Positions 3,674 through 43,402 of a DNA stretch of 45,853 nucleotides are shown here, in pieces (the stretch's first letter is position 1; every line of letters starts with the position of its first letter). Source of the DNA: Candidatus Coatesbacteria bacterium (GTDB lineage Bacteria > RBG-13-66-14). The notes beneath the pieces were generated by a model. It was not told where the DNA came from. It worked only from the letters and a program-made list of their open reading frames with translations, and searched no databases. The stretch is from the NCBI GenBank assembly GCA_014728225.1, contig WJLX01000059.1, positions 1 through 45,853 of the forward strand, written 5' to 3'. The position numbers and the translations under genes were made by a program.

Positions 3674-6106
3674 CTACATCAGACTCACCGGATCGACATC
3701 CACGGCCAGGTGCGGCTTGGACCAACCCCGGGCGCTGTCCCGGGCCGTCTTCAAGACCCGCTTGAGGATCTCCCCGCTGGAAGCCTTGAGCAGCAACTGG
3801 AAGCGCCAGCGGCCGCGCACTCGTTCCAACGGCGCCGGAGCCGGGCCGAGGAGCCGATAGCGCCGCCGATCATAGTGCTCGGCCAGCAGGCCGCCCAGCT
3901 CGTCGGCCAGATCGACGGCGGCGCCGTGAGCCTGCGGCGCCGCCTCGGCGCTGACCACTAGGGAGGCCAGCCGGACGTAGGGCGGCAGCAGGGCCCGGCG
4001 CCGGAAATCCAGCTCGGCCTCCAGGTACTCGGCGTAACGCCCCCGGGCGGCGCAGTCGACGGCGTAGTGCTCGGCCTGATGGGCGGCGATGATCGCCCGA
4101 CCCGGCCACAAGCCCCGTCCGGCCCGGCCGATGACCTGGGTCAGCAGGTTGAAGGTCCGCTCGGCGGCGCGGTAATCGGGCAGGGCCAGACCGGCGTCGG
4201 CGCGCAACACCCCGACGACGGTGACCCGGGGAAAGTGGAAGCCCTTGGCGACCATCTGGGTGCCCAGCAGAACGTCGGCCTGCCCGGCGGCGAAGCGGGC
4301 CAGCACGCCCTCGTGTCCCCCGGAGCCCCGGGCGGTGTCCGAATCCAGGCGTACCACCCGCACCAGGGGCAGCAGGCGGTTGAGCTCCTGCTCGATGCGC
4401 TCGGTGCCGACGCCGAGGGGCGCCAGGGTTCCAGTGCCGCCGCAGCTCGGACAGCGGGGCGGGAGCGGCTCGACGGCGTCGCAGTGGTGGCAGCGCAGCT
4501 CGTTGCCGGTGCGATGCAGTACCAGGGGCACGTTGCACTGGCCGCAGACGGGGATGAAGCCGCAGCGTTCGCACTGCAACCCGGCGGCGTAACCCCGGCG
4601 GTTCAGCAGCACGATCCCCTGGCGACCCCGCTTGACGGCCTCGCCGAGGGCTGTGGAGAGCTCGGGCGGGACGAGGGTTTCGGCCTCGCGACCGCGCAGA
4701 TCGACGAGCTGGACGGCGGGGGGGGCGGCGCCGTCGACGCGCTCGGTCAGCTCCAGGGTCTCCAACCGACCCTCCCGGGCCAGGTGGGCGCTCCAGATAC
4801 TGGGCGTGGCCGACCCCAACAGCAGGGGGCAATCGTTGAGGCGGCAGCGCCGGGCGGCGACCTCGCGGGCGTGGTAGCGGGGGACCTCGGCCTGCTTGTA
4901 GGCGTCCTCGTGCTCCTCGTCGATGACGACGAGGCCCAGGTCTTTGATTGGCGCGAAAACGGCTGAGCGCGGCCCCAGGGCCACCCGGGCCCGGCCCTCG
5001 TAGAGCCGCAACCACTCGCCCCGGCGCCGCGCCGGACCCTGGCGGGAGTGCAGCAGGGCCACGGCGTCGCCGAAACGGGCGCCGAACTGCCGGGCCAACT
5101 GGGCGGTCAGGGCGATCTCGGGCACCAGGACGATGGCGCCCCGTCCGCGCTCCAGGGCCGCGGCGACACACCGCAGGTAGACCTCGGTCTTGCCCGACCC
5201 GGTGACTCCGCGCAGCAGGAAGGCCGACCAGGAACCCAGCGCGGAGCAGACCCGCCCCACGGCGCGGGCCTGCTCGTTATTCAAATCGTGGCCGGCGTCG
5301 TCGCCCTCGTCGACGCCCAGGCGCTCCAACCGGGCCGACTCGACCCAGCCCCGGCGCTCCAGGGCGTGGAGGGTCGAATGGCCGGTGTCGGCCCAGCGGC
5401 AGGCGTCGGCGGCCCAAACGTATTCCCCCGGCGCCCCGTGGGCCTCGAGGGCCGCCAGCAGCCGGGCCTGGGCCGGGGCCTTGTCCGCCAGCTCATCGAG
5501 GTCGGGCAGCCCGTCGGTCAGGCGCACCGCCAGGCGCTCTCTGGTCTTGAGTTTCGGCGCCAGCGGTTCGTCCCAGCTCCGCAGGTGCCCCGTCTCGACG
5601 AGACGGTTCAGCTCGGCGGCGGCCTCCTTGGGCAGTCCATCGAGCAGGGCCCGCCGGTTGAGCGGGCCGTCGCCGAGGCGATCCCACAGCTCCAGGGCCG
5701 GCCCGACGAGCTCCAGCGGCCGACCCGCCGGACCCCAGCCGTACATCCGCCGGGTGCGCGAGGAAACGGGCAGCATGGCGTCCAGGGCCGCCCCGAGGGG
5801 CGCCTGATAGTACTCGGCCAGCCAGCGGCCCAGCTCCAGCCGCTCGGCGTCGATCAACGGCCGGCGGTCGATCACCCCGCGGACGGCCTTGACCTTGGCC
5901 GGCTCGAGACCCGGCGGCGGCTCCGCGGTCACGCCGACGACGAAGCCCACCTCCCCCCGACCGCCCAGGGGCACGTGAACCCGGGCCCCGAGCCGGGCGT
6001 CCATCCCCCGGGGCAGGCGGTAGGTCAACGGATCGCCCAGATCCAGGGGCAGGGCCACCTCGAGGTAGGGCGGACGCTCCGGCAACACTGGCACCTCGTC
6101 GCTCAT
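3674..6106 (-). CDS. priA: Primosomal replication protein N' (PriA helicase)
   Basis: PriA is the 3'-to-5' superfamily 2 helicase that reloads the replisome at collapsed forks. From ATG 6106 the product is 810 residues, slightly longer than the E. coli protein. The order of parts is normal: an N-terminal 3'-binding domain (YLEVALPLDLGDPLTYRLP), Walker A GVTGSGKTEVY (Lys306), a DEEH box, a Cys cluster (CERCG, CGQC, CHHC, CPSCGG, beginning near residue 512) that binds zinc, and the helicase C-terminal domain with QVIGRAGR. The track frame extends to 6400, but homology starts at MSDEVPVLPERP; ATG 6115 is an in-frame alternative. Neither start has a clear ribosome-binding site. Confidence 0.96.
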   Translation of the reverse strand: MSDEVPVLPERPPYLEVALPLDLGDPLTYRLPRGMDARLGARVHVPLGGRGEVGFVVGVTAEPPPGLEPAKVKAVRGVIDRRPLIDAERLELGRWLAEYYQAPLGAALDAMLPVSSRTRRMYGWGPAGRPLELVGPALELWDRLGDGPLNRRALLDGLPKEAAAELNRLVETGHLRSWDEPLAPKLKTRERLAVRLTDGLPDLDELADKAPAQARLLAALEAHGAPGEYVWAADACRWADTGHSTLHALERRGWVESARLERLGVDEGDDAGHDLNNEQARAVGRVCSALGSWSAFLLRGVTGSGKTEVYLRCVAAALERGRGAIVLVPEIALTAQLARQFGARFGDAVALLHSRQGPARRRGEWLRLYEGRARVALGPRSAVFAPIKDLGLVVIDEEHEDAYKQAEVPRYHAREVAARRCRLNDCPLLLGSATPSIWSAHLAREGRLETLELTERVDGAAPPAVQLVDLRGREAETLVPPELSTALGEAVKRGRQGIVLLNRRGYAAGLQCERCGFIPVCGQCNVPLVLHRTGNELRCHHCDAVEPLPPRCPSCGGTGTLAPLGVGTERIEQELNRLLPLVRVVRLDSDTARGSGGHEGVLARFAAGQADVLLGTQMVAKGFHFPRVTVVGVLRADAGLALPDYRAAERTFNLLTQVIGRAGRGLWPGRAIIAAHQAEHYAVDCAARGRYAEYLEAELDFRRRALLPPYVRLASLVVSAEAAPQAHGAAVDLADELGGLLAEHYDRRRYRLLGPAPAPLERVRGRWRFQLLLKASSGEILKRVLKTARDSARGWSKPHLAVDVDPVSLM

Positions 6107-6212
6107 GGGTTGCATTCTAGCACGAAGGACGGCCCGCGCGCTTGCTAGGGAACCCGCGTCTCCTGTATGATAGTTACTCTCGCAACCGACATCACCCGCC
6201 CGGAGGTCAGCC

Positions 6213-7328
6213 GTGGAGTCGCGCAAGACCTGGAAGATCGTCATCATCGTCGCCGCCGCCCTGGCCGCCGGCACCCTGGCCGTACTGCTCAACATCCGCA
6301 CCGAGGAGGTCGTCGAGGGCGTCGAGGCCCGCCTGTTCTTCGGCTCCCTCTCCAGCGACGAGGCCGCCCGCCTCCTCGGACTGGCCGAGGAGGCCCGCAC
6401 CGCCGGCGATCTCGAGCGGGCCCTCGGCCTGGTGACCTACGCCTACACCCGCCACGACGAGGAGCTGGTCGACGACCTGATGCTGCTCTGGGGACGCATC
6501 CTCCTAGAACAGGACAAGGCCGACGAGGCCGTCGAGGTCCTGCGACGCCTGATCGACGATCACCCCGAGGGCGACGTCATCGTCGACGACCTCCTCGGCC
6601 CCCAACTCTACGCCGTGGCCGAGGCCTCCTCCAGCAGCGACAGCATCGACTACGCCCTGACGGTCAAGCTGGCCGGGCTGGCCCGCCGGGCCGATTCCGC
6701 CGCCCTCGAGCGCTTCCAAACCCTGATGGACGGCTGGCTGGCCCGGGACTTCGACCTGGATTGGACCTACGAGCATCAGGGCGAGATGGAGTACCACAGC
6801 CGCTCCACGGCGCGCTCCGATGTCGGCGCCGCCGAACACGAAGCCGAACTGCGCGCCCCCGGGCGCTTCGCCGCCGAGCTGAGCACCGTCCTCAACCTGG
6901 GACCGCCTCCCGGCGAAGAGGAGCCCCTCGTCTCCGAACCCAAGCTGGCCGAGTATCTGACCCTGACCGAGCGTATCACCGTCGAGGTGCGCGGGACCGC
7001 GGTCGAGGAAATCGAACCCGAGGAGGACGCAGAAGACGCCGAGGACGCCGAACCCGCCGCAGGCGACGAGGACGAAGAGGAAGACGACTGGCTGACCGAA
7101 CACCTCGCCGAGGGCATGACCGAAGAGGAGGCCGCCCTGCTGCGCGAAGTCCTCAGCGCCACCCCCACCCCGGAGGACCGCGCCAGCTACCGCGCCGTGA
7201 CCCGGGTGGACTGCCGCCTCGAGGGCTTCTCCCTGGGCGAACTGTTCGACCACCTCGGCCTGGAACCCTACACCGGACGGCCCGCCCTGCCGGGAAGCCA
7301 GCTTTCGCCGGAGGAGGATGGGGAATGA
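6213..7328 (+). CDS. Membrane-anchored TPR-like protein, unknown role
   Basis: The product is 371 residues, starting at GTG 6213 with a clear GGAGG site seven bases before it. After a few charged residues comes one hydrophobic segment (about residues 8-25, IVIIVAAALAAGTLAVLL), which is probably an N-terminal membrane anchor. Next comes an alpha-helical region with TPR-like spacing (LLGLAEEARTAGDLERALGLVTYAY and LEQDKADEAVEVLRRLI). A very acidic stretch rich in Glu/Asp follows at about 265-295. I recognise no specific family. It stands alone, divergent from priA, and repeat element A follows about 620 bases downstream. Confidence 0.8.
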   Translation: MESRKTWKIVIIVAAALAAGTLAVLLNIRTEEVVEGVEARLFFGSLSSDEAARLLGLAEEARTAGDLERALGLVTYAYTRHDEELVDDLMLLWGRILLEQDKADEAVEVLRRLIDDHPEGDVIVDDLLGPQLYAVAEASSSSDSIDYALTVKLAGLARRADSAALERFQTLMDGWLARDFDLDWTYEHQGEMEYHSRSTARSDVGAAEHEAELRAPGRFAAELSTVLNLGPPPGEEEPLVSEPKLAEYLTLTERITVEVRGTAVEEIEPEEDAEDAEDAEPAAGDEDEEEDDWLTEHLAEGMTEEEAALLREVLSATPTPEDRASYRAVTRVDCRLEGFSLGELFDHLGLEPYTGRPALPGSQLSPEEDGE

Positions 7329-14195: not shown

Positions 14196-16721
14196 TTAGC
14201 GGGTGACGGCCAGTCGACGGGTCGCCGTGTCACCGGCGGCCTCGAGGCGGATCAGGTAGATGCCGGAGCTGTGGCTCGCGGTGTTCCAGGTGACCTCGTG
14301 GCGACCGGCGGCCAGCTCCTCGTCGACGAGGGTGGTGACCAGGCGGCCGGCGAGATCGTAGATCCGCACTGTGACAACGCCGCTCTCGGCCAGCTCGAAG
14401 GGGATGGTGGTGGCGCCGGCGGTCGGGTTGGGGTAGTTCTGTCCCAGGCTGGTGACGCGGTCGGCGGCGCAGAAGCTGACGCTGATCGGACCGTGAAGCT
14501 CGCTGCGCCCGGCGGTGTCGATCAACTCCAGCTTGTAGGAATAGCTGGCGTCGGTCTCGACACCCCGGTCGAGGAAGCGGCGGTCGCCGATGGCGTTATC
14601 GTTGAGGCGGAGGTAGTCGCCGCCGTCGCTGCGCAGGATGTTGACGCCGCTGAGTTCGGCGGGGTCGCCCACGCTCCAGCTCAACAGGACGCCCTCATCT
14701 TCGGCGTCGGCCCGGAAGACGACGTCGTCGAAGCCCTGCTGGACCGCATCGATGAAGAAGTCGTCGAAGTAGAAACCCTCGTAGTTGACGTTGTAATCGC
14801 TGTAGAAGCGGAAGCGCAGCTTGACGACGGAACCCTCGTAATCGGAGAGGTTGTATTCGAGCTCCTGCCAGCTCAGCTCGTTGCCGTTGTAGGTATCGAG
14901 GGTCTCCCAGCCGCCGCCGTCGTCGATCTCGAGGTAGACGTAATCATAGCCGGACTCGACGTAGTACCTGGTCTGGAAGGTCAGCTCGTAGTGGTCGGCG
15001 TCGATGAAGATCGGCACCGTGGTCAGGGTCGATTCCTGATCGTCGGCGTAATCACCGGAGCCGGTGTCGCCGCATTTCCAGGAATAAGTGCCCGAGACGG
15101 CGTCCTCGTCGGAGAGATGCCACTCGTCATTGGCGCCCTGATGGGTCCACAGACCGTCGCCGGACTCCATGTCGTCGACGAAGCCGGCGCCGACGACGAT
15201 ACCGAAGGTCAAGTCGTTGCTGTAGCCGCCGTCGGCGCTGGCGGTCAGGTCGGCGGAGGTGTTGTAGGGCGGCGGGCATTCCTCGGCGACCTCGAAGGTG
15301 TAATCCTCGGCGGCGGTGCCGCCCGAGGCGATGGTGCCGAAATCCGCCGAACCGTCGGTGACGGTGAAGTAGGTGTCATCGATGGCCAGCTCGGCGCTGA
15401 CACCGGTGGCCGTGTCGGTGCCGTTGTTGATCAGGGTCACCGTGGCGACGATGGTTTCCCCGGGATCGATCTTGCCGTCGCCGTTGCCGGCGGAATCATC
15501 GAAGCTGACGCCGTCGACGGCCAGCATGACGGGTTCGACGGGGAAGGGATCGGCGTACATCTCGAGGAATTCGTCCCAGAGGGTCTCCGAGAAGTCGATG
15601 TTGTTCTGGTAACTGGTCCAGCTCGAATCGCCGGAGCCGTTGGTGGGGAACCAGATGGTCAGCCCGCCGGAGCCGTCGATGGGGTTGTGCATCCCGCCGG
15701 CCAGCACGTAGCTCTCCAGGTTGCTCTCCACGGCGGCGGCCGCGTCGCGCAGCTCAGCCGGCAGGTCGCCGTCGGCGGCCAGGACGCTAATGAAGTCGTA
15801 GAGATCGCGGTCCTCCGAGGTGTTCCAGTAGCTGGCCGAGTTGCGCGCCGCGGTGATGTCGGACTCGTATTCGTAGCAGTAGTCGTACAGCAACTGGCAG
15901 AGGTTGTCCCAGTCGGCTGACATCACACTGTCCCAGTTCTTGACATCAGCGGCGCCCTGGGTTACCCCGCTGCCGTAGAAGTCCAGGTAGTCGTCGACGA
16001 TCCGGGCGGCCAGTTCCTCCGGGGTGACGTCGCTGTCCTCCTGGAAGATCTCGAAGGCCTGGTAGTCCCAGCCCTCGCCGGGCTCCGAGTCCGGGCTGGC
16101 GATCTGGATGCCGACGACGTCGTCTTCCATCTGGTAGCCGGTCTCGATCTGACCCAGCAGGCAGACGTCGTAGCCCAGGATGTCGATATAGGTGCCGACG
16201 TTCTTCAGCGCGCTCTCGAACTCCCAGATCTTCAGATCGCCGCAGGCGCCGCGATCGATCCAGTCCAGGGTGTCGTCGCGCCAGATGCCCGAGCCGTGGT
16301 CCCAGGCCGAGATGGCGTAGTGATCGGCCGGGTAGTTGTCGACGCACCACTGGACGAGGTTCTCGAAGGCGTCGATGTCGGTGTCCATGTCCAGGGTGTC
16401 GTCCCAGATGCCGTGACCGTCGATCTCCGTGGAGACGACATGGCTCATCCCCTCGTCACCGTCGTAGTACTGGGGATCGTAGTCGACATGGTAGAGCTGC
16501 GCTTCGTGGCTGCCGTAGCCCCCGGTGGTGCCCAACAACCAGATGACGTCGACTCCGTCGGCGTACTGGCTGTAGTCGCAGGTCTCCATCTCGTTGAGGT
16601 CGTCATGGCCGTAGGAATAGAGGTTGTTCTGGTTGTTGCACCAGACGATCACCGTCCACGAATCGGCGACCACGGCCGTCGGCAGGACGATGAGCAGCAG
16701 GACGAGCAGCAGGCGTTTCAT
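14196..16721 (-). CDS. Secreted clostripain-like (C11) cysteine protease with FlgD/T9SS-like C-terminus
   Basis: The product is 841 residues with a signal peptide (MKRLLLVLLLIVLPTAVVA). The N-terminal 400 residues match clostripain family C11: TVIVWCNNQNNLYSY, the histidine motif AISAWDHGSG (His142) and the cysteine motif DILGYDVCLLGQ (Cys187) form the expected dyad. Next comes an Ig-like CARDB-type segment (about 405-510, DPGETIVATVTLINNGT). A MAM/jelly-roll-like beta domain follows with the DGLWTHQGANDEWHLSD motif. The C-terminal about 80 residues are of the FlgD/type IX sorting kind (NYPNPTAGATTIPFEL, VRIYDLAGRLV, WNTASHSSGIYLIRL). AAGGAG precedes ATG 16721. It is probably exported and surface-attached or released; the secretion route is inferred. 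Confidence 0.9.
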   Translation of the reverse strand: MKRLLLVLLLIVLPTAVVADSWTVIVWCNNQNNLYSYGHDDLNEMETCDYSQYADGVDVIWLLGTTGGYGSHEAQLYHVDYDPQYYDGDEGMSHVVSTEIDGHGIWDDTLDMDTDIDAFENLVQWCVDNYPADHYAISAWDHGSGIWRDDTLDWIDRGACGDLKIWEFESALKNVGTYIDILGYDVCLLGQIETGYQMEDDVVGIQIASPDSEPGEGWDYQAFEIFQEDSDVTPEELAARIVDDYLDFYGSGVTQGAADVKNWDSVMSADWDNLCQLLYDYCYEYESDITAARNSASYWNTSEDRDLYDFISVLAADGDLPAELRDAAAAVESNLESYVLAGGMHNPIDGSGGLTIWFPTNGSGDSSWTSYQNNIDFSETLWDEFLEMYADPFPVEPVMLAVDGVSFDDSAGNGDGKIDPGETIVATVTLINNGTDTATGVSAELAIDDTYFTVTDGSADFGTIASGGTAAEDYTFEVAEECPPPYNTSADLTASADGGYSNDLTFGIVVGAGFVDDMESGDGLWTHQGANDEWHLSDEDAVSGTYSWKCGDTGSGDYADDQESTLTTVPIFIDADHYELTFQTRYYVESGYDYVYLEIDDGGGWETLDTYNGNELSWQELEYNLSDYEGSVVKLRFRFYSDYNVNYEGFYFDDFFIDAVQQGFDDVVFRADAEDEGVLLSWSVGDPAELSGVNILRSDGGDYLRLNDNAIGDRRFLDRGVETDASYSYKLELIDTAGRSELHGPISVSFCAADRVTSLGQNYPNPTAGATTIPFELAESGVVTVRIYDLAGRLVTTLVDEELAAGRHEVTWNTASHSSGIYLIRLEAAGDTATRRLAVTR

Positions 16722-21157: not shown

Positions 21158-21172
21158 CTTCGCCCCCCCCCC

Positions 21173-24558: not shown

Positions 24559-27135
24559 TTGCGAAAACTGCTGCTGACACTCCTCGTGCTGCCCGTCGTC
24601 TGTCTGGGCTTCACCTACACCATCGATCCCGCCCAGGTCGAGCTCAAGACCAGCCACGGCTATACCCGGCCCGTCATCGCCGGCGCCGGGGACATCAACG
24701 AGCCCGGCTCCCCCGCCCTGCCCTGGCTGCCCCTGCAGATCGCCACCGAGGCCGGCATGGGCACCGCCGACGTTCACGTCGTCAACCTGCGCACGATCGA
24801 ACTGCCCGGTTTCCATGTGGTCTTCCCCACCCAGCAAGCCCGGCCGATCTCCCAGCCCGGCGACTTCGTCGAGAACTTCGACCAGGCCGTCTACGCCGCC
24901 GACACTCCCTACCCGGCCGAACCCCTGCGCGCCGCCGGCGGCGGTAACCTGGCCGGACACGGCGTCGCCGGAGTCAACTTCTGCCCCTTCATCTACCATC
25001 CGGACAGCGGCAAGCTGGAGCTGATCACCGAGATCACCTTCACGATCGAGTACGAGAGCCTGCCCTACAGCGTCCGGCGCCCCGCCGCCCTGACCCCCCG
25101 CGTCGCCGAGGCCAACGCCGAGCGGGTCCGCAACCTGGTGATCAACCCCGAGGCCGTCGGTCTGCCCGCGCCCGTGGTCGAACCAAACGTGATCGGCAGG
25201 GGATACGAGCCGTTGGAGGATGAACCCGACTACGGCGACACCGCCGAATGGGTGCTGATCACCGACGAGTCGATGGTCGACGCCTTCGAACCCCTGGCCG
25301 AGTGGAAACTGCAGAAGGGCTTGACTACGGCGATCGTCACCACCCAGTTCATCGCCGACAACTACTCCGGCGTCGACGCCGCGGAAAAGATCCGCAACTT
25401 CATCATCGATGCCTTCGAGAATTGGTCGACCCAGTACGTCGTCCTCGGCGGCGACTGCAACATGGTCCGCGAACGCCGCGGCTGGGTCACCTACTACACC
25501 GATGACGACACCAGCCGCATCCCCTGCGACTACTACTACTCCGACCTGGACGGTGACTGGAACGCCGACGGCGACGACAAGTGGGGCGAGTGGGGCTCCG
25601 ACAACGTCGACCTCTACGCCGATGTCCACGTCTCGCGCCTGCCGGCCCAGAACGCAACCGAGGCCGAAGGCATGGTCGACAAGGTCCTGGTCTACGAGCA
25701 GTCAATCCCCGCCGATTTCCCGCTGACCACCTTGTTCTTCGCCGGCAGGCTGGACAGCAATCCCACCTGGGGCGGTGACGGCAAGGATTACGTCGCCGAC
25801 GAGCTGCCCAGTCAGTTCCTGCCCTACTCGACGTTCTACGAACGCGACATGACCTACAACGCCGCCGACATCATCGTCGAGTACGAGGCCGGCAACTCCG
25901 CCGTCGTCAACCAGCTGCACCACTCCAGCTACACCGTTATCGGCGCCGGCTACGACTACATCTATACCTCCGACGCCATGTCGATGAGCAACGGCGATTA
26001 CTCGGGCTGGATCTACCTCCAGGGCTGCATGTGCGGCGGTTTCGACCGCTCGCGCAGCGCCTGTGAGGGCCTGGTCGTCAACGCCGACGGCGGTTCGGTG
26101 GCCTCGATGTGCAACTCGCGCTACGGGCTCTACCAGCCCGGCAGCCCCGAGTACGGCCCCAGCAACGTGCTCGATAAGGCCTACTTCGAAGGCGTCTTTA
26201 CCGAGGGCCTGACCGCCTTCGGCGCCGCCCAGTCCTACAGCAAGGACTACTTCGTCCCCCAGGCCGGTAACACCTCCATCCGCTGGTGCATGTACGTCCA
26301 GAACGTGCTGGGCCCCTGCGAGACGCCGAGTTGGACCGACACGCCCTACGATCTGGTCGTCGATCATCCCGACACCCTCGACGGCTATGAACTGACCGTC
26401 AGCGTCGACGACACCACCCGGGCCGCCGTCAACGGCGCCACGGTCTGCCTCTTCATCGCCGATATGCTGCACAAGGTCGATTACACCGACGCCGCCGGCG
26501 AGGTGACCTTCGACCTCTCCAGCGATCCCCTAGACGGCGACATCACCATCACCGTCACCGCGCCCAACCGATACTACTACCAGGGATACTGCTCCGTGGT
26601 CAGCACCGACAGCGACGTGGCCGAGTTCAACGGCAGCGCCACCGAGGAAGGCGCCCTGATCAGTTGGCGGCTCGAAGACGGAGCCGACTACGCCGGCCTG
26701 CATATCCTGCGTGACGGCGAGCGCCTGACCAACAGCCCCCTCGAACGCACCGCCGGCAGCTACCTCGATCGCCAAGCCGCCGGCTCCGCCGATTATTACC
26801 TCGAGCTTATCGACCACTCCGGCCGCTCCACCGAGTACGGACCGGTCACCGTGGTCCTGCCCGAAACCTCCGGCGTCCGCGCCCTGTCGGCCGCCTACCC
26901 CAACCCGGCCCGCGACGCCGTCAGCCTCGAGCTCAACCTGCCCGAGAGCGAGAACGTCAACGTGGCCGTCTACGACCTCTCCGGCCGCCGCGTGGCCACC
27001 CTGACCGAGGGCGAACTGTCCGCCGGTCGACACCTCATCGCCTGGAACTGCGCCGCCGCCCCCGAGGGCCTCTACCTGGTCCGGCTGGTCGGCGAAGCCG
27101 GCGTGCTGACATCACGTCTGGTCATCGCCCGCTAA
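24559..27135 (+). CDS. Gingipain-like (C25) secreted cysteine protease with sorting-type C-terminus
   Basis: The product is 858 residues, starting at TTG 24559, fixed by AAGGAGG four bases upstream and by the signal peptide RKLLLTLLVLPVVCLG. A gingipain propeptide-like region covers about 20-215. The C25 catalytic domain follows: WVLITDESMVDAFEPLAEWKLQKGL, YVVLGGDCNMV, a histidine pair in NQLHHSSYTVIG (His454/455) and a cysteine pair in LQGCMCGGFD (Cys490/492), which place the expected dyad. A carboxypeptidase-regulatory-like Ig segment follows (about 615-680), then a FlgD/type IX-like tail (AAYPNPARDAVSLEL, VAVYDLSGRRVATL, WNCAAAPEGLYLVRL). TTG starts usually reduce translation. It is exported and probably processed; its substrate is unknown. 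Confidence 0.9.
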   Translation: MRKLLLTLLVLPVVCLGFTYTIDPAQVELKTSHGYTRPVIAGAGDINEPGSPALPWLPLQIATEAGMGTADVHVVNLRTIELPGFHVVFPTQQARPISQPGDFVENFDQAVYAADTPYPAEPLRAAGGGNLAGHGVAGVNFCPFIYHPDSGKLELITEITFTIEYESLPYSVRRPAALTPRVAEANAERVRNLVINPEAVGLPAPVVEPNVIGRGYEPLEDEPDYGDTAEWVLITDESMVDAFEPLAEWKLQKGLTTAIVTTQFIADNYSGVDAAEKIRNFIIDAFENWSTQYVVLGGDCNMVRERRGWVTYYTDDDTSRIPCDYYYSDLDGDWNADGDDKWGEWGSDNVDLYADVHVSRLPAQNATEAEGMVDKVLVYEQSIPADFPLTTLFFAGRLDSNPTWGGDGKDYVADELPSQFLPYSTFYERDMTYNAADIIVEYEAGNSAVVNQLHHSSYTVIGAGYDYIYTSDAMSMSNGDYSGWIYLQGCMCGGFDRSRSACEGLVVNADGGSVASMCNSRYGLYQPGSPEYGPSNVLDKAYFEGVFTEGLTAFGAAQSYSKDYFVPQAGNTSIRWCMYVQNVLGPCETPSWTDTPYDLVVDHPDTLDGYELTVSVDDTTRAAVNGATVCLFIADMLHKVDYTDAAGEVTFDLSSDPLDGDITITVTAPNRYYYQGYCSVVSTDSDVAEFNGSATEEGALISWRLEDGADYAGLHILRDGERLTNSPLERTAGSYLDRQAAGSADYYLELIDHSGRSTEYGPVTVVLPETSGVRALSAAYPNPARDAVSLELNLPESENVNVAVYDLSGRRVATLTEGELSAGRHLIAWNCAAAPEGLYLVRLVGEAGVLTSRLVIAR

Positions 27136-39164: not shown

Positions 39165-39251
39165 GTAAAAAAGAAGGGCGGAGTTTTATACCCCTCCCAC
39201 CTAACAGATGTAGTTTCAATAGTTATCAACAATGACAGTATAAATAGCTAA

Positions 39252-40588
39252 TTAATTTTCAGCATAATTAGGCATCAAATCGTCTATTATATTTTTGAGT
39301 TGTTTATATCTTTCTTTTTGGTTACATTTATTTATAGGTATTTTAAATTTTCCATACTTTGAGTATACTTCAGCTGGACACCCCCCCCTTTGCAATATTT
39401 AATATATTCACATTTTTGACAATCATATGAATTATCAACTACATCAAAGTTGTACTTATTGCGTTTATTTAGTATATCTTTGAGAGATTCTTGCGGATAT
39501 TTTCCTAAAACAAATGAAACATTAGATGATGTATTTGCAAGATCGCATTTACCAAAAAACCCCTTGCAAAAGGATATTTCACCATTAGGTGATACTGCAA
39601 TACCATTTGATATTCTTGAGCAAGCGTTGAACGAGTACCCCTCTTCTTCTAATTTGATATTACGTATTATTGTTGATATATAGTTGTTATAATTAATTGA
39701 TTTTGCATATTTGACTGCCAATTTATAGCAGATCATATCAAGTTTATTGCTATCTATTGTTGGGGCCATCAGCTTAGCATATAAAGCGCGACCAGCTTGT
39801 ACTAATGCACCTGAAGAAAACGCGCTTGCGCCACATTTTATTGCACAATTAATTGTATCTTCCAGATAGTAATAATTATCATTTGTAAGCACCATTGCCA
39901 TGCCAAAGTTAATATTACTCTTTTTTAACGATTCTACCCCTCTAAGCATAGAATAAAAAGTATTAGCTCCACGTATATGCTCGTGTTGTTCTTTATTATG
40001 ACCATCTAATGATACTTGAGCATAAATAACATTACACTGTGACATATATTTAGCAATACTATCATTGATAAGACATGCATTAGTAAGTATTTTTACAATA
40101 AAACCTTTATTATATATATATTTAAGTAGTTTATAAAAATATGGCTTTATTAGTGGCTCGCCACCACTAAATACAATTATTTTAAAATGATTATCAAATA
40201 ACTCATCTACTAAATTTTTACATTCTTCATATGTTAATTCATTATCTAATGAATTACCTGCATTTACCATGCAATGTTTGCAGTTTAGGTTGCATTCATA
40301 TGTTATATCCCACTCAACAGTCCAGTTGTTATAACCATCATGTTCTTTCATAAATCGTAAATGTTTAAGTTCGTGTATAAAATTATAGATATCATTTAGT
40401 TCAATATTATTGTTTTTGCTCAACTTACTTATAATATTATTAATATTATATCCTGCAAAAAGCATATTCGCTATAATGTAACCTTGATGATTTAACTCAA
40501 CTCGCATACCAATATTCAAATTAGTTATATAATAGCGTCCATTGTTTTCGTTAATTATAACAGATGGGCATAATAAGTTATTATTCAT
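39252..40588 (-). CDS. Radical SAM/SPASM RiPP maturase with RRE-like N-terminus, frameshifted
   Basis: The N-terminal about 80 residues have the PqqD-like pattern of a RiPP recognition element (GYIIANMLFAGYNINNIISKL...IHELKHLRFM). The radical SAM domain follows with CNLNCKHC (Cys99, 103, 106), FSGGEPL and QVSLDGHNKE. The SPASM region has Cys323, 341 and 348, then CQKCEYIKYCKGG (390-401). At 39381-39388 a run of eight G (minus strand) puts the gene out of frame, ending it as 418 residues at 39332. Removing two G or adding one restores GGCPAEVYSKYGKF and an open frame to a stop at 39252. The gene is about 27% GC against the surrounding roughly 68%. It lies 14 bases after the precursor gene and lacks its own ribosome-binding site, so coupling is likely. 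Confidence 0.9.
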
Positions 40589-40602
40589 ATCAATATATCA
40601 GT

Positions 40603-40698
40603 TTAAGCGCCGAGGACGCATATCCTTGCACAACGATGGACAATTTCAATCACTCCGATAACCTTAGGTTTTTCGTTCTCATCTGCGGGCTTTCTCAT
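40603..40698 (-). CDS. Putative RiPP precursor peptide (31 aa)
   Basis: ATG 40698 is preceded by GGAGG with five-base spacing, the best ribosome-binding site in the island. The frame gives 31 residues. A charged leader (MRKPADENEKPK) leads into a hydrophobic segment (VIGVIEIV), and the end, HRCARICVLGA, has two cysteines spaced C-x3-C. Immediate adjacency to a radical SAM/SPASM enzyme with an RRE-like domain is the usual layout for sactipeptide- or ranthipeptide-like peptides whose cysteines become thioethers. I know no described precursor with this sequence. That it is a precursor is inference; that it is translated is likely. Confidence 0.75.
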   Translation of the reverse strand: MRKPADENEKPKVIGVIEIVHRCARICVLGA

Positions 40699-40745
40699 CT
40701 TAACCTCCGGTAGTTAGGTTGTGTAACATAAGGCGATTTAAACGT

Positions 40746-40776
40746 ATTATATGATGATTGTCTACAGACTATAGTC
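40746..40776 (-). promoter_or_regulatory. Promoter and operator-like palindromes of the RiPP locus
   Basis: On the minus strand a perfect TATAAT box lies at 40746-40751, about 48 bases before the precursor ATG. No good -35 box is present. Just upstream are two overlapping palindromes, GTCTACAGAC (40760-40769) and GACTATAGTC (40767-40776), sharing GAC, in the position an activator or repressor would bind. Confidence 0.5.
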
Positions 40777-40868
40777 ACCTTTTTTTTAAATTGCTATCCC
40801 CCCCCCTTGCCACATCGCCGCTCTCGGGTTATTATTATCGTGAGGCTTCAACCTACGGGAGGGTGGCG

Positions 40869-41111
40869 ATGGACCCCCACGAATACTACTACGTCGAAGT
40901 CAAGATGAAGGACGGCGAGGTCTGCCGGGCCATGGCCATCGGCGACACGGCGGCCTGGATCTGCCCCTACTGCCACCAACTGATGATGGGCCGGCTCTCC
41001 CCGGACCCCAAGCAGCGCCCCACCAGGGCGCAGAAGTGCTGCTCGCGCCGCTACCTGATCCACGGCGCCCCGGGCAACGGCGATCACATCCGCTCCATCG
41101 AGGAATTCTAA
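40869..41111 (+). CDS. Small Cys-rich (zinc-type) protein, unknown
   Basis: The product is 80 residues from ATG 40869 with GGGAGGGTGG upstream. It has an acidic/aromatic start (MDPHEYYYVEVKMKDGEVCRAM), the CPYCHQLM knuckle, and a later CCSRR pair that could complete a zinc site. High third-position GC shows it belongs to the host genome, not the AT-rich island. I do not recognise the family. A GC hairpin terminator follows. Confidence 0.7.
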   Translation: MDPHEYYYVEVKMKDGEVCRAMAIGDTAAWICPYCHQLMMGRLSPDPKQRPTRAQKCCSRRYLIHGAPGNGDHIRSIEEF

Positions 41112-41227: not shown

Positions 41228-41285
41228 TGCCTGTTGTCTCCGGCTCGGGTAAGATTGCCTCGACAACCTACGCGGGAGTGAAACG

Positions 41286-41930: not shown

Positions 41931-42076
41931 CTCGGAACACTGTCGGCTCGCGGCGGGCTGACAGCAGCGCTATCGAGCTAACCCCCTGAAGCTGAGAACC
42001 CCCCCCGGCGTTCAATAGGTCAACGACACAGGCCCGGATTGGGGATGGGACCGGCGGGTGGCTGAACGGTGAAGAA

Positions 42077-42232: not shown

Positions 42233-42309
42233 TGGTGGCGGAGAAGGGACTCGAACCCTTGACGCCACGGATATGAGCCGTGTGCTCTGACCGACTGAGC
42301 TACTCCGCC
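42233..42309 (-). tRNA. tRNA-Met (CAT)
   Basis: The minus strand folds as a standard 77-base tRNA including encoded CCA (42233-42235). The acceptor stem is GGCGGAG with CTCCGCC and the discriminator is A. The D-loop has the AGCTCAGTCGG form. The anticodon loop CTCATAT sits on a CACGG/CCGTG stem, and the T arm contains GGTTCGAGTCC. The fully paired first base pair argues against initiator tRNA; elongator Met is likeliest, and Ile2 (lysidine-modified CAT) cannot be excluded. Confidence 0.95.
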
Positions 42310-42849: not shown

Positions 42850-43340
42850 TTATGAACAAGCGCGAAGTATGGTCCTGAGAATGTATAGTGTGCTTTCGGC
42901 GTCTCGATGGATGAAGCTGAACGACCTTTCAGGGATCAAGAGTCCGAAGCTGTGCTTGAAGCCGTCGTGGCAGGCTTTTCGGCGGCGATGCGCTCGCGGA
43001 TTAGCTTCTAGTAGCGATATGCCGTATTGCGCCGGCTGCCCAAATCCCCGGCGGCTCGGACGGTCGGGACGCCGAGCCGGAACAGACGGGCTGTCTCGCC
43101 GCGTTTTGCCGGCGGCGGCGCTTTGCGACGTTCCTGGGGACGACGCTTGAACAGCTTGCCGCGACACTCGCCTTTTTAACGTCCGTCGGCGCAGCGTTAG
43201 TGATGGCGGTAATTGCAGCTGGAACAGCTGGCGTGCCGGTACTCCGACCCGCACTTCCCCGCCACATTGCCCCCCGCGTCGGTGGCGAGCTGACAGACCC
43301 GTTCACGCCGCTGGAAGTATCCAACTGCAACAGCTGATGT
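42850..43340 (-). pseudogene. Decayed transposase-like remnant (IS1595-like)
   Basis: In one minus-strand frame, broken by several stops, I read a Cys-rich zinc-ribbon-like stretch (KCGSEYRHASCSSC). A helix-turn-helix-like stretch follows (LFRLGVPTVRAAGDLGSRRNTAYRY, then a stop, then KLIRERIAAE). In another frame comes FKHSFGLLIPERSFSFIHRDAESTLY. This order resembles the N-terminal zinc finger and HTH and the VFGLL strand of IS1595-type transposases with the catalytic core deleted. No terminal inverted repeats are evident. The family is a tentative inference. Confidence 0.4.
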
Positions 43341-43402
43341 TCAGCTTCTGTGATGATCCCTTAAAATATTGCCCGTCTCACCGGCGGCGACCAGCGGGAT
43401 TG

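What the first reader, a model, noticed from the sequence alone, without database searches (positions are those of the whole stretch)
40588..40710. Putative new RiPP locus: 31-residue Cys-x3-Cys peptide next to an RRE-radical SAM-SPASM enzyme
Seen directly: a short frame (40603-40698) missed by length cut-offs has the best ribosome-binding site in the island (GGAGG, five-base spacing), a charged leader and a C-terminus HRCARICVLGA. Fourteen bases later starts a radical SAM/SPASM gene whose first 80 residues look like a PqqD-type recognition domain. Established: this pairing is how sactipeptides, ranthipeptides and related thioether peptides are made. Inference: the two cysteines are the modified residues. 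I know no described family with this core. No transporter or protease is adjacent, so the product may be exported by host machinery.
Basis: partly seen in the sequence, partly recalled or inferred. Interest (0 to 1): 0.9.

Follow-up and report, generated by a model that had tools for sequence, protein, structure and literature searches.

The report
Orphan radical-SAM peptide locus, enzyme frame-broken
A short gene for a 31-residue peptide sits just before a gene for a peptide-modifying radical enzyme, which looks like a small acquired natural-product locus, but the enzyme gene as assembled changes frame in a run of eight G's and no relative of the pair was found elsewhere.

Summary
On the minus strand, 40603-40698 encodes MRKPADENEKPKVIGVIEIVHRCARICVLGA behind GGAGG with 5-nt spacing, 14 nt before a radical SAM gene (39332-40588). 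Both lie in a 1.6-kb AT-rich island in a 66% GC contig. The enzyme assignment is now well supported: Radical_SAM and SPASM domains, and an N-terminal beta3-alpha3 domain that folds like lasso and CteB recognition elements (RREs). The whole model's nearest solved structures are SkfB, CteB and SuiB, all RRE-fused RiPP maturases. That the peptide is its substrate rests on position, ribosome-binding site and leader character only. No relative of the peptide was found, and none of the enzyme closer than 38% identity over the core. Nine comparable tracts inside genes of this genome all keep frame, so systematic assembly error is not favoured; pseudogene, phase-off variant and slippage stay open. Best reading: a horizontally acquired orphan RRE-rSAM-SPASM RiPP locus of unproven activity and unknown chemistry. 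New member of a known kind; moderate interest.

The parts
40603..40698 (-). 31-codon ORF, candidate RiPP precursor MRKPADENEKPKVIGVIEIVHRCARICVLGA (Cys23, Cys27); KVIGVIEIV is a likely strand-forming recognition stretch (inference)
   Evidence: shuffle null 0.18% for an ORF of this length with RBS at this place; no family match
40704..40708 (-). Shine-Dalgarno GGAGG, 5 nt before the ATG
40746..40751 (-). TATAAT, possible -10 element of the peptide/enzyme unit; no good -35
   Evidence: sequence only; not found by the two-hexamer scan; weak
39332..40588 (-). radical SAM/SPASM enzyme ORF as assembled, 418 aa; no RBS of its own, ATG 14 nt after the peptide stop (translational coupling inferred)
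   Evidence: Radical_SAM 2.7e-24, SPASM 7.5e-5; CX3CX2C at C99, C103, C106
40334..40588 (-). N-terminal RRE-like domain, residues 1-85, beta3-alpha3
   Evidence: AlphaFold2 alone, mean pLDDT 78.7; best PDB matches TbiB1 with leader peptide, TM 0.79, then a lasso B1 protein, CteB, TigE; weak match to lasso PqqD model, E 0.0027
39779..40321 (-). radical SAM core, residues 90-270
39381..39388 (-). G8 run (C8 on the + strand) at which the enzyme frame leaves the SPASM domain
   Evidence: TIGR04085 33.1 bits in the assembled frame, 36.9 bits with the downstream frame attached
39252..39380 (-). remainder of the SPASM domain in the other frame (..CPAEVYSKYGKFKIPINKCNQKERYKQLKNIIDDLMPNYAEN)
39170..40806 (.). 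AT-rich island (about 25-33% GC through the enzyme gene) in 60-70% GC surroundings; a C9/G9 tract (40798-40806) lies at its right edge, 100 nt upstream of the peptide ATG

Best explanation
The locus is a minimal, horizontally acquired RiPP-type unit: a 31-residue precursor peptide followed at 14 nt by a radical SAM/SPASM maturase with a fused RRE. The likely working is that the RRE binds the leader around KVIGVIEIV as an extra beta strand (inferred), that SAM cleavage at the CX3CX2C cluster starts radical chemistry on the C-terminal core HRCARICVLGA with help from the SPASM clusters (inferred from the family), and that one or both cysteines become thioether donors (a guess; epimerisation of Val/Ile or a carbon-carbon crosslink is also allowed). 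Shown: the ORF, its RBS, the domain architecture, the island, the frame break. The enzyme as assembled is interrupted in its SPASM domain at a G8 run, so it makes a complete enzyme only if the tract differs in other cells, if slippage rescues the frame, or if the assembly is wrong there.
For: Radical_SAM 2.7e-24 and SPASM 7.5e-5. RRE topology predicted in the whole model and in the domain alone. The nine top PDB chains for the whole model are SkfB, CteB and SuiB, all RRE-fused RiPP maturases; the domain alone matches leader-bound lasso RREs and CteB. The NCBIfam sactipeptide maturase StsB model aligns over residues 14-407, RRE included, though far below its cut-off. A peptide ORF with RBS at this place is rare in shuffles, 0.18%. 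Island composition. The architecture is the one described for RiPP radical SAM enzymes in PMC8326336 and PMC7470986.
Against: No homologue of the peptide in anything searched and no close homologue of the enzyme. Enzyme frame broken at 39381-39388. No protease or transporter beside it. The best whole-protein profile scores are to heme and mycofactocin radical SAM families, so the core alone would not say RiPP.
Confidence: 0.6

Rival explanations
1. Decayed remnant: an acquired RiPP locus whose maturase is now a pseudogene, the frame lost in the G8 run; the peptide ORF is still readable because it is short.
For: Frame change in the SPASM domain; isolated pair without export or protease genes; strongly foreign composition; all nine intragenic G/C tracts of 8 or more examined elsewhere keep frame, so a general homopolymer error of the assembly is not the obvious cause.
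Against: No other stop or frame change in about 400 codons and an intact catalytic motif; the downstream frame is still open to a natural-looking C-terminus, so any loss is recent.
Confidence: 0.35
2. Phase-variable RiPP locus: the G8 tract in the enzyme gene (and perhaps the G9 tract 100 nt upstream of the peptide) are slippage switches; the assembly caught the off state.
For: G/C tracts of 8 or more number 53 in 2.96 Mb (counted), yet five lie in this 46-kb contig and two in or at the edge of this 1.6-kb AT-rich island, where they are least expected; the tract sits where a length change switches the last SPASM cysteines in and out.
Against: No reads or second genome to show length variation; counted after the fact; the G9 tract is not in a recognisable promoter spacer; no paper holding RiPP, phase variation and homopolymeric together was found.
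Confidence: 0.12
3. Assembly or sequencing error in the G8 run; the gene is intact.
For: It is a homopolymer in a draft genome; the rest of the gene is undisturbed.
Against: Nine of nine intragenic G/C tracts of 8 or more in the same assembly keep frame, and two apparent changes were ordinary gene junctions.
Confidence: 0.25
4. The peptide ORF is not the substrate: it is a chance or regulatory (leader) ORF, and the enzyme acts on another peptide or protein encoded elsewhere.
For: No conservation could be shown; an ORF of this length in this place occurs in 9% of shuffles if the RBS is ignored.
Against: 0.18% with the RBS; the 14-nt junction and lack of an RBS for the enzyme suggest one translational unit.
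Confidence: 0.3
5. The peptide is the degraded start of another radical SAM gene, since VIEIVHRCARICVLG recalls EITHRCNLKCxHC.
For: Visual likeness to the motif, e.g. SITHRCNLKCIHC in L115.
Against: Scored with a matrix of 100 such motifs it gets -5.4 bits against a median of 45.5 for real ones, and 13% of its shuffles do as well; no continuation in any frame.
Confidence: 0.02

Closest known systems
SkfB / SkfA (sporulation killing factor, sactipeptide)
   Same: N-terminal RRE + radical SAM + C-terminal auxiliary-cluster domain; best PDB match of the model (6efn) and best sequence match in the PDB
   Different: 18% identity in the structural alignment; SkfB has a twitch, not a full SPASM (PMC8326336); known loci carry export and immunity genes (own knowledge), this one has none beside it
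CteB / CteA (SCIFF ranthipeptide)
   Same: RRE + radical SAM + SPASM; second structural match (5why, 5wgg)
   Different: SCIFF precursors have about six Cys in 45 residues (PMC8172795); here two Cys in 31
SuiB / SuiA (streptide)
   Same: RRE + radical SAM + SPASM; third structural match (5v1q); small peptide gene beside the enzyme gene
   Different: streptide needs a Lys-Trp crosslink (own knowledge); this peptide has no Trp, Tyr or Phe
StsB family sactipeptide maturases (NF045574)
   Same: profile aligns over residues 14-407, including the RRE
   Different: 90 bits against a cut-off of 625, so not a member
PQQ and mycofactocin (PqqA/PqqE, MftA/MftC)
   Same: precursor of about 30 residues (own knowledge); the MftC profile scores well on the core
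   Different: separate RRE protein there; the Tyr needed in those precursors is absent here

Membership tests
RRE-fused radical SAM RiPP maturases (general architecture) | radical SAM core with CX3CX2C | tested here: met
   C99-C103-C106; Radical_SAM 2.7e-24
RRE-fused radical SAM RiPP maturases (general architecture) | RRE, winged helix of three strands and three helices | tested here: met
   (structure); sequence profiles only weak
RRE-fused radical SAM RiPP maturases (general architecture) | complete SPASM (seven Cys: CX9-15GX4C, CX2CX5CX3C, C) or twitch domain | tested here: inconclusive
   C323-X12-G-X4-C341 and C390-X2-C393-X5-C399 are in frame; the last two Cys lie beyond the frame change at the G8 run
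RRE-fused radical SAM RiPP maturases (general architecture) | co-encoded precursor peptide | tested here: inconclusive
   ORF and RBS present; conservation of the pairing could not be tested for want of relatives
sactipeptides | Cys sulfur to alpha-carbon thioether in the product | not testable with these tools
   needs mass spectrometry
sactipeptides | maturase belongs to a known sactisynthase family | tested here: not met
   StsB, AlbA and SkfB models all far below their cut-offs
ranthipeptides | SCIFF-type (about six Cys in 45 residues) or CX3D/E-type precursor | tested here: not met
   core CARIC has no Asp or Glu at that spacing and only two Cys; no NCBIfam model matches the peptide
PQQ / mycofactocin type cofactor precursors | Tyr in the precursor core | tested here: not met
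   no Tyr in the peptide

The most novel reading that the evidence does not exclude
A phase-variable RiPP: length changes in poly-G tracts switch the SPASM domain of the maturase (and possibly expression) on and off, so only part of the population makes the modified peptide, whose HRCARICVLGA core belongs to no described class.
Probability: 0.08. Interest if true: 0.75.

Novelty: new member of a known kind. Interest (0 to 1): 0.42.

Why it matters
If the pair works, it adds an orphan class of radical SAM peptide from a little-sampled lineage, in the smallest possible format (one peptide, one enzyme). The frame break matters in practice: heterologous expression of the gene as assembled would give an enzyme without its last SPASM cysteines and a misleading negative.

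Tried and rejected
Close relatives of the enzyme: single-sequence scans of 85k species and of viral contigs found none; a motif scan for CNLxCxHCMxNA gave seven loci, none close; 98, 386, 290, 48 and 297 genomes gave nothing beyond about 38% identity over the core. Not exhaustive: these scans rest on exact short patterns or on samples. Peptide relatives: weak genome hits are short, without a comparable small ORF before a radical SAM gene; the two followed up lie antisense to, or overlap, ordinary genes; viral pattern hits were out of frame in a capsid-like gene; phage hits E 8 in a terminase; plasmids none. Small ORFs upstream of Lachnospiraceae RRE-rSAM genes (L115, L117, L119) do not resemble the peptide. 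Degraded radical SAM start: rejected by shuffles. General homopolymer error: nine of nine comparable tracts keep frame. A four-letter-codon reading for a full-length fold failed because GGGG occurs in frame earlier in the gene. Terminal repeats of an inserting element around the island: none convincing.

Full report
Observation. The minus strand reads GGAGG-TTAAG-ATG at 40698 and runs 31 codons to TAA at 40603: MRKPADENEKPKVIGVIEIVHRCARICVLGA. Fourteen bases later an ATG opens a 418-codon frame to 39332 that has no Shine-Dalgarno of its own, so the two are probably one translational unit (inference). In 20,000 dinucleotide shuffles of the 212 upstream bases, 9.2% hold an ATG ORF at least as long ending within 60 nt, but only 0.18% hold one with a comparable ribosome-binding site. 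The ORF is more GC-rich than its immediate flanks, 0.46 against roughly 0.2-0.36. I take it as probably translated.

The island. The enzyme gene is 29% GC with GC3 0.22; the neighbouring aldehyde dehydrogenase gene has GC3 0.93. The AT-rich stretch runs from about 39170 to 40800 and holds only the peptide and the enzyme. It is foreign by composition; no terminal repeats of an inserting element were seen. The window is a whole 45.9-kb contig of a 2.96-Mb draft genome, 96.8% complete.

The enzyme. Pfam finds Radical_SAM (2.7e-24) and SPASM (7.5e-5). NCBIfam gives many radical SAM models, best AhbD, mycofactocin MftC and NirJ2, none near its cut-off; the sactipeptide maturase StsB model aligns over residues 14-407. 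The first 88 residues match PqqD-type models weakly (0.0027 for the lasso chaperone, 0.072 for PqqD). AlphaFold2 on the whole protein with seven sequences gives mean pLDDT 65.6, with three strands and three helices at the N-terminus; the N-terminal 85 residues alone give the same at pLDDT 78.7. Foldseek on the whole model ranks SkfB, CteB and SuiB chains as the nine best; on the domain alone the best are TbiB1 with bound leader (TM 0.79), another lasso B1 protein, CteB and TigE. This is the RRE architecture described for RiPP radical SAM enzymes in PMC8326336 and PMC7470986.

The frame break. After C390-X2-C393-X5-C399-Lys the gene enters a G8 run (plus-strand C8, 39381-39388) and, as assembled, continues as GGGVQLKYTQSMENLKYL-stop. 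In another frame the sequence goes on as CPAEVYSKYGKFKIPINKCNQKERYKQLKNIIDDLMPNYAEN, which carries the last two SPASM cysteines; attaching it raises the SPASM-domain score from 33.1 to 36.9 bits. As a control I fetched 40 other stretches around G/C tracts of eight or more in the same genome. Together with the tract in the priA gene of the window, nine lie clearly inside a gene, and all keep frame; two apparent changes were gene junctions. So the assembly is not generally wrong at such tracts, though nine is a small control. The genome has 53 such tracts (my count), five of them in this contig and two in or at the edge of the AT-rich island, a suggestive but post hoc clustering.

The peptide as substrate. 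Nothing in Pfam or NCBIfam matches it, and nothing in plasmids, phages, 98 genomes or viral contigs resembles it beyond chance. The enzyme has no close relatives in the searches I could run, so conservation of the pairing is untested. The leader's KVIGVIEIV could form the extra strand that RREs bind (inference). The core has two Cys, His, Val and Ile but no aromatic residue other than His, which speaks against PQQ-, mycofactocin- and streptide-like products and leaves thioether or epimerisation chemistry, or a His crosslink.

How it most likely works. The RRE binds the leader, the radical SAM cluster generates a radical on the core, and the SPASM clusters assist; a host protease would free the product. 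Only the architecture is shown; substrate, chemistry and activity are inferred. The broken SPASM frame means the locus may be silent in the sequenced population.

Verdict. The likeness of HRCARIC to the radical SAM motif was tested and is chance.

Noticed in passing
window 39381-39388, 40798-40806, 41999-42006, 21163-21172, 4718-4725: Five of the genome's 53 G/C homopolymer tracts of eight or more lie in this one 46-kb contig (expected about 0.8).
   Followed up: partly
window 3677-6400 (-): Intact priA with a C8 tract inside the coding sequence, in frame.
   Followed up: yes
window 40849-40865 and 41264-41280: A 17-nt near-repeat (CAACCTACGGGAGGGTG / CAACCTACGCGGGAGTG) lies just upstream of two neighbouring plus-strand genes, perhaps a shared leader or RBS motif.
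   Followed up: no
window 40869-41111 (+): Small Cys-containing protein (CPYC, CC) without any Pfam match, next to the island.
   Followed up: partly
window 24559-27132 (+) and 14199-16721 (-): Gingipain-like C25 and clostripain-like C11 peptidases with Por-type secretion tails.
   Followed up: no
window 42850-43400: A stretch without a clear intact gene, possibly decayed gene remnants, near tRNA-Met (42233-42309).
   Followed up: no
G000 contigs C135 and C145, first bases: Contigs that begin with runs of 11 and 23 C, perhaps sequencing-chemistry artefacts.
   Followed up: no
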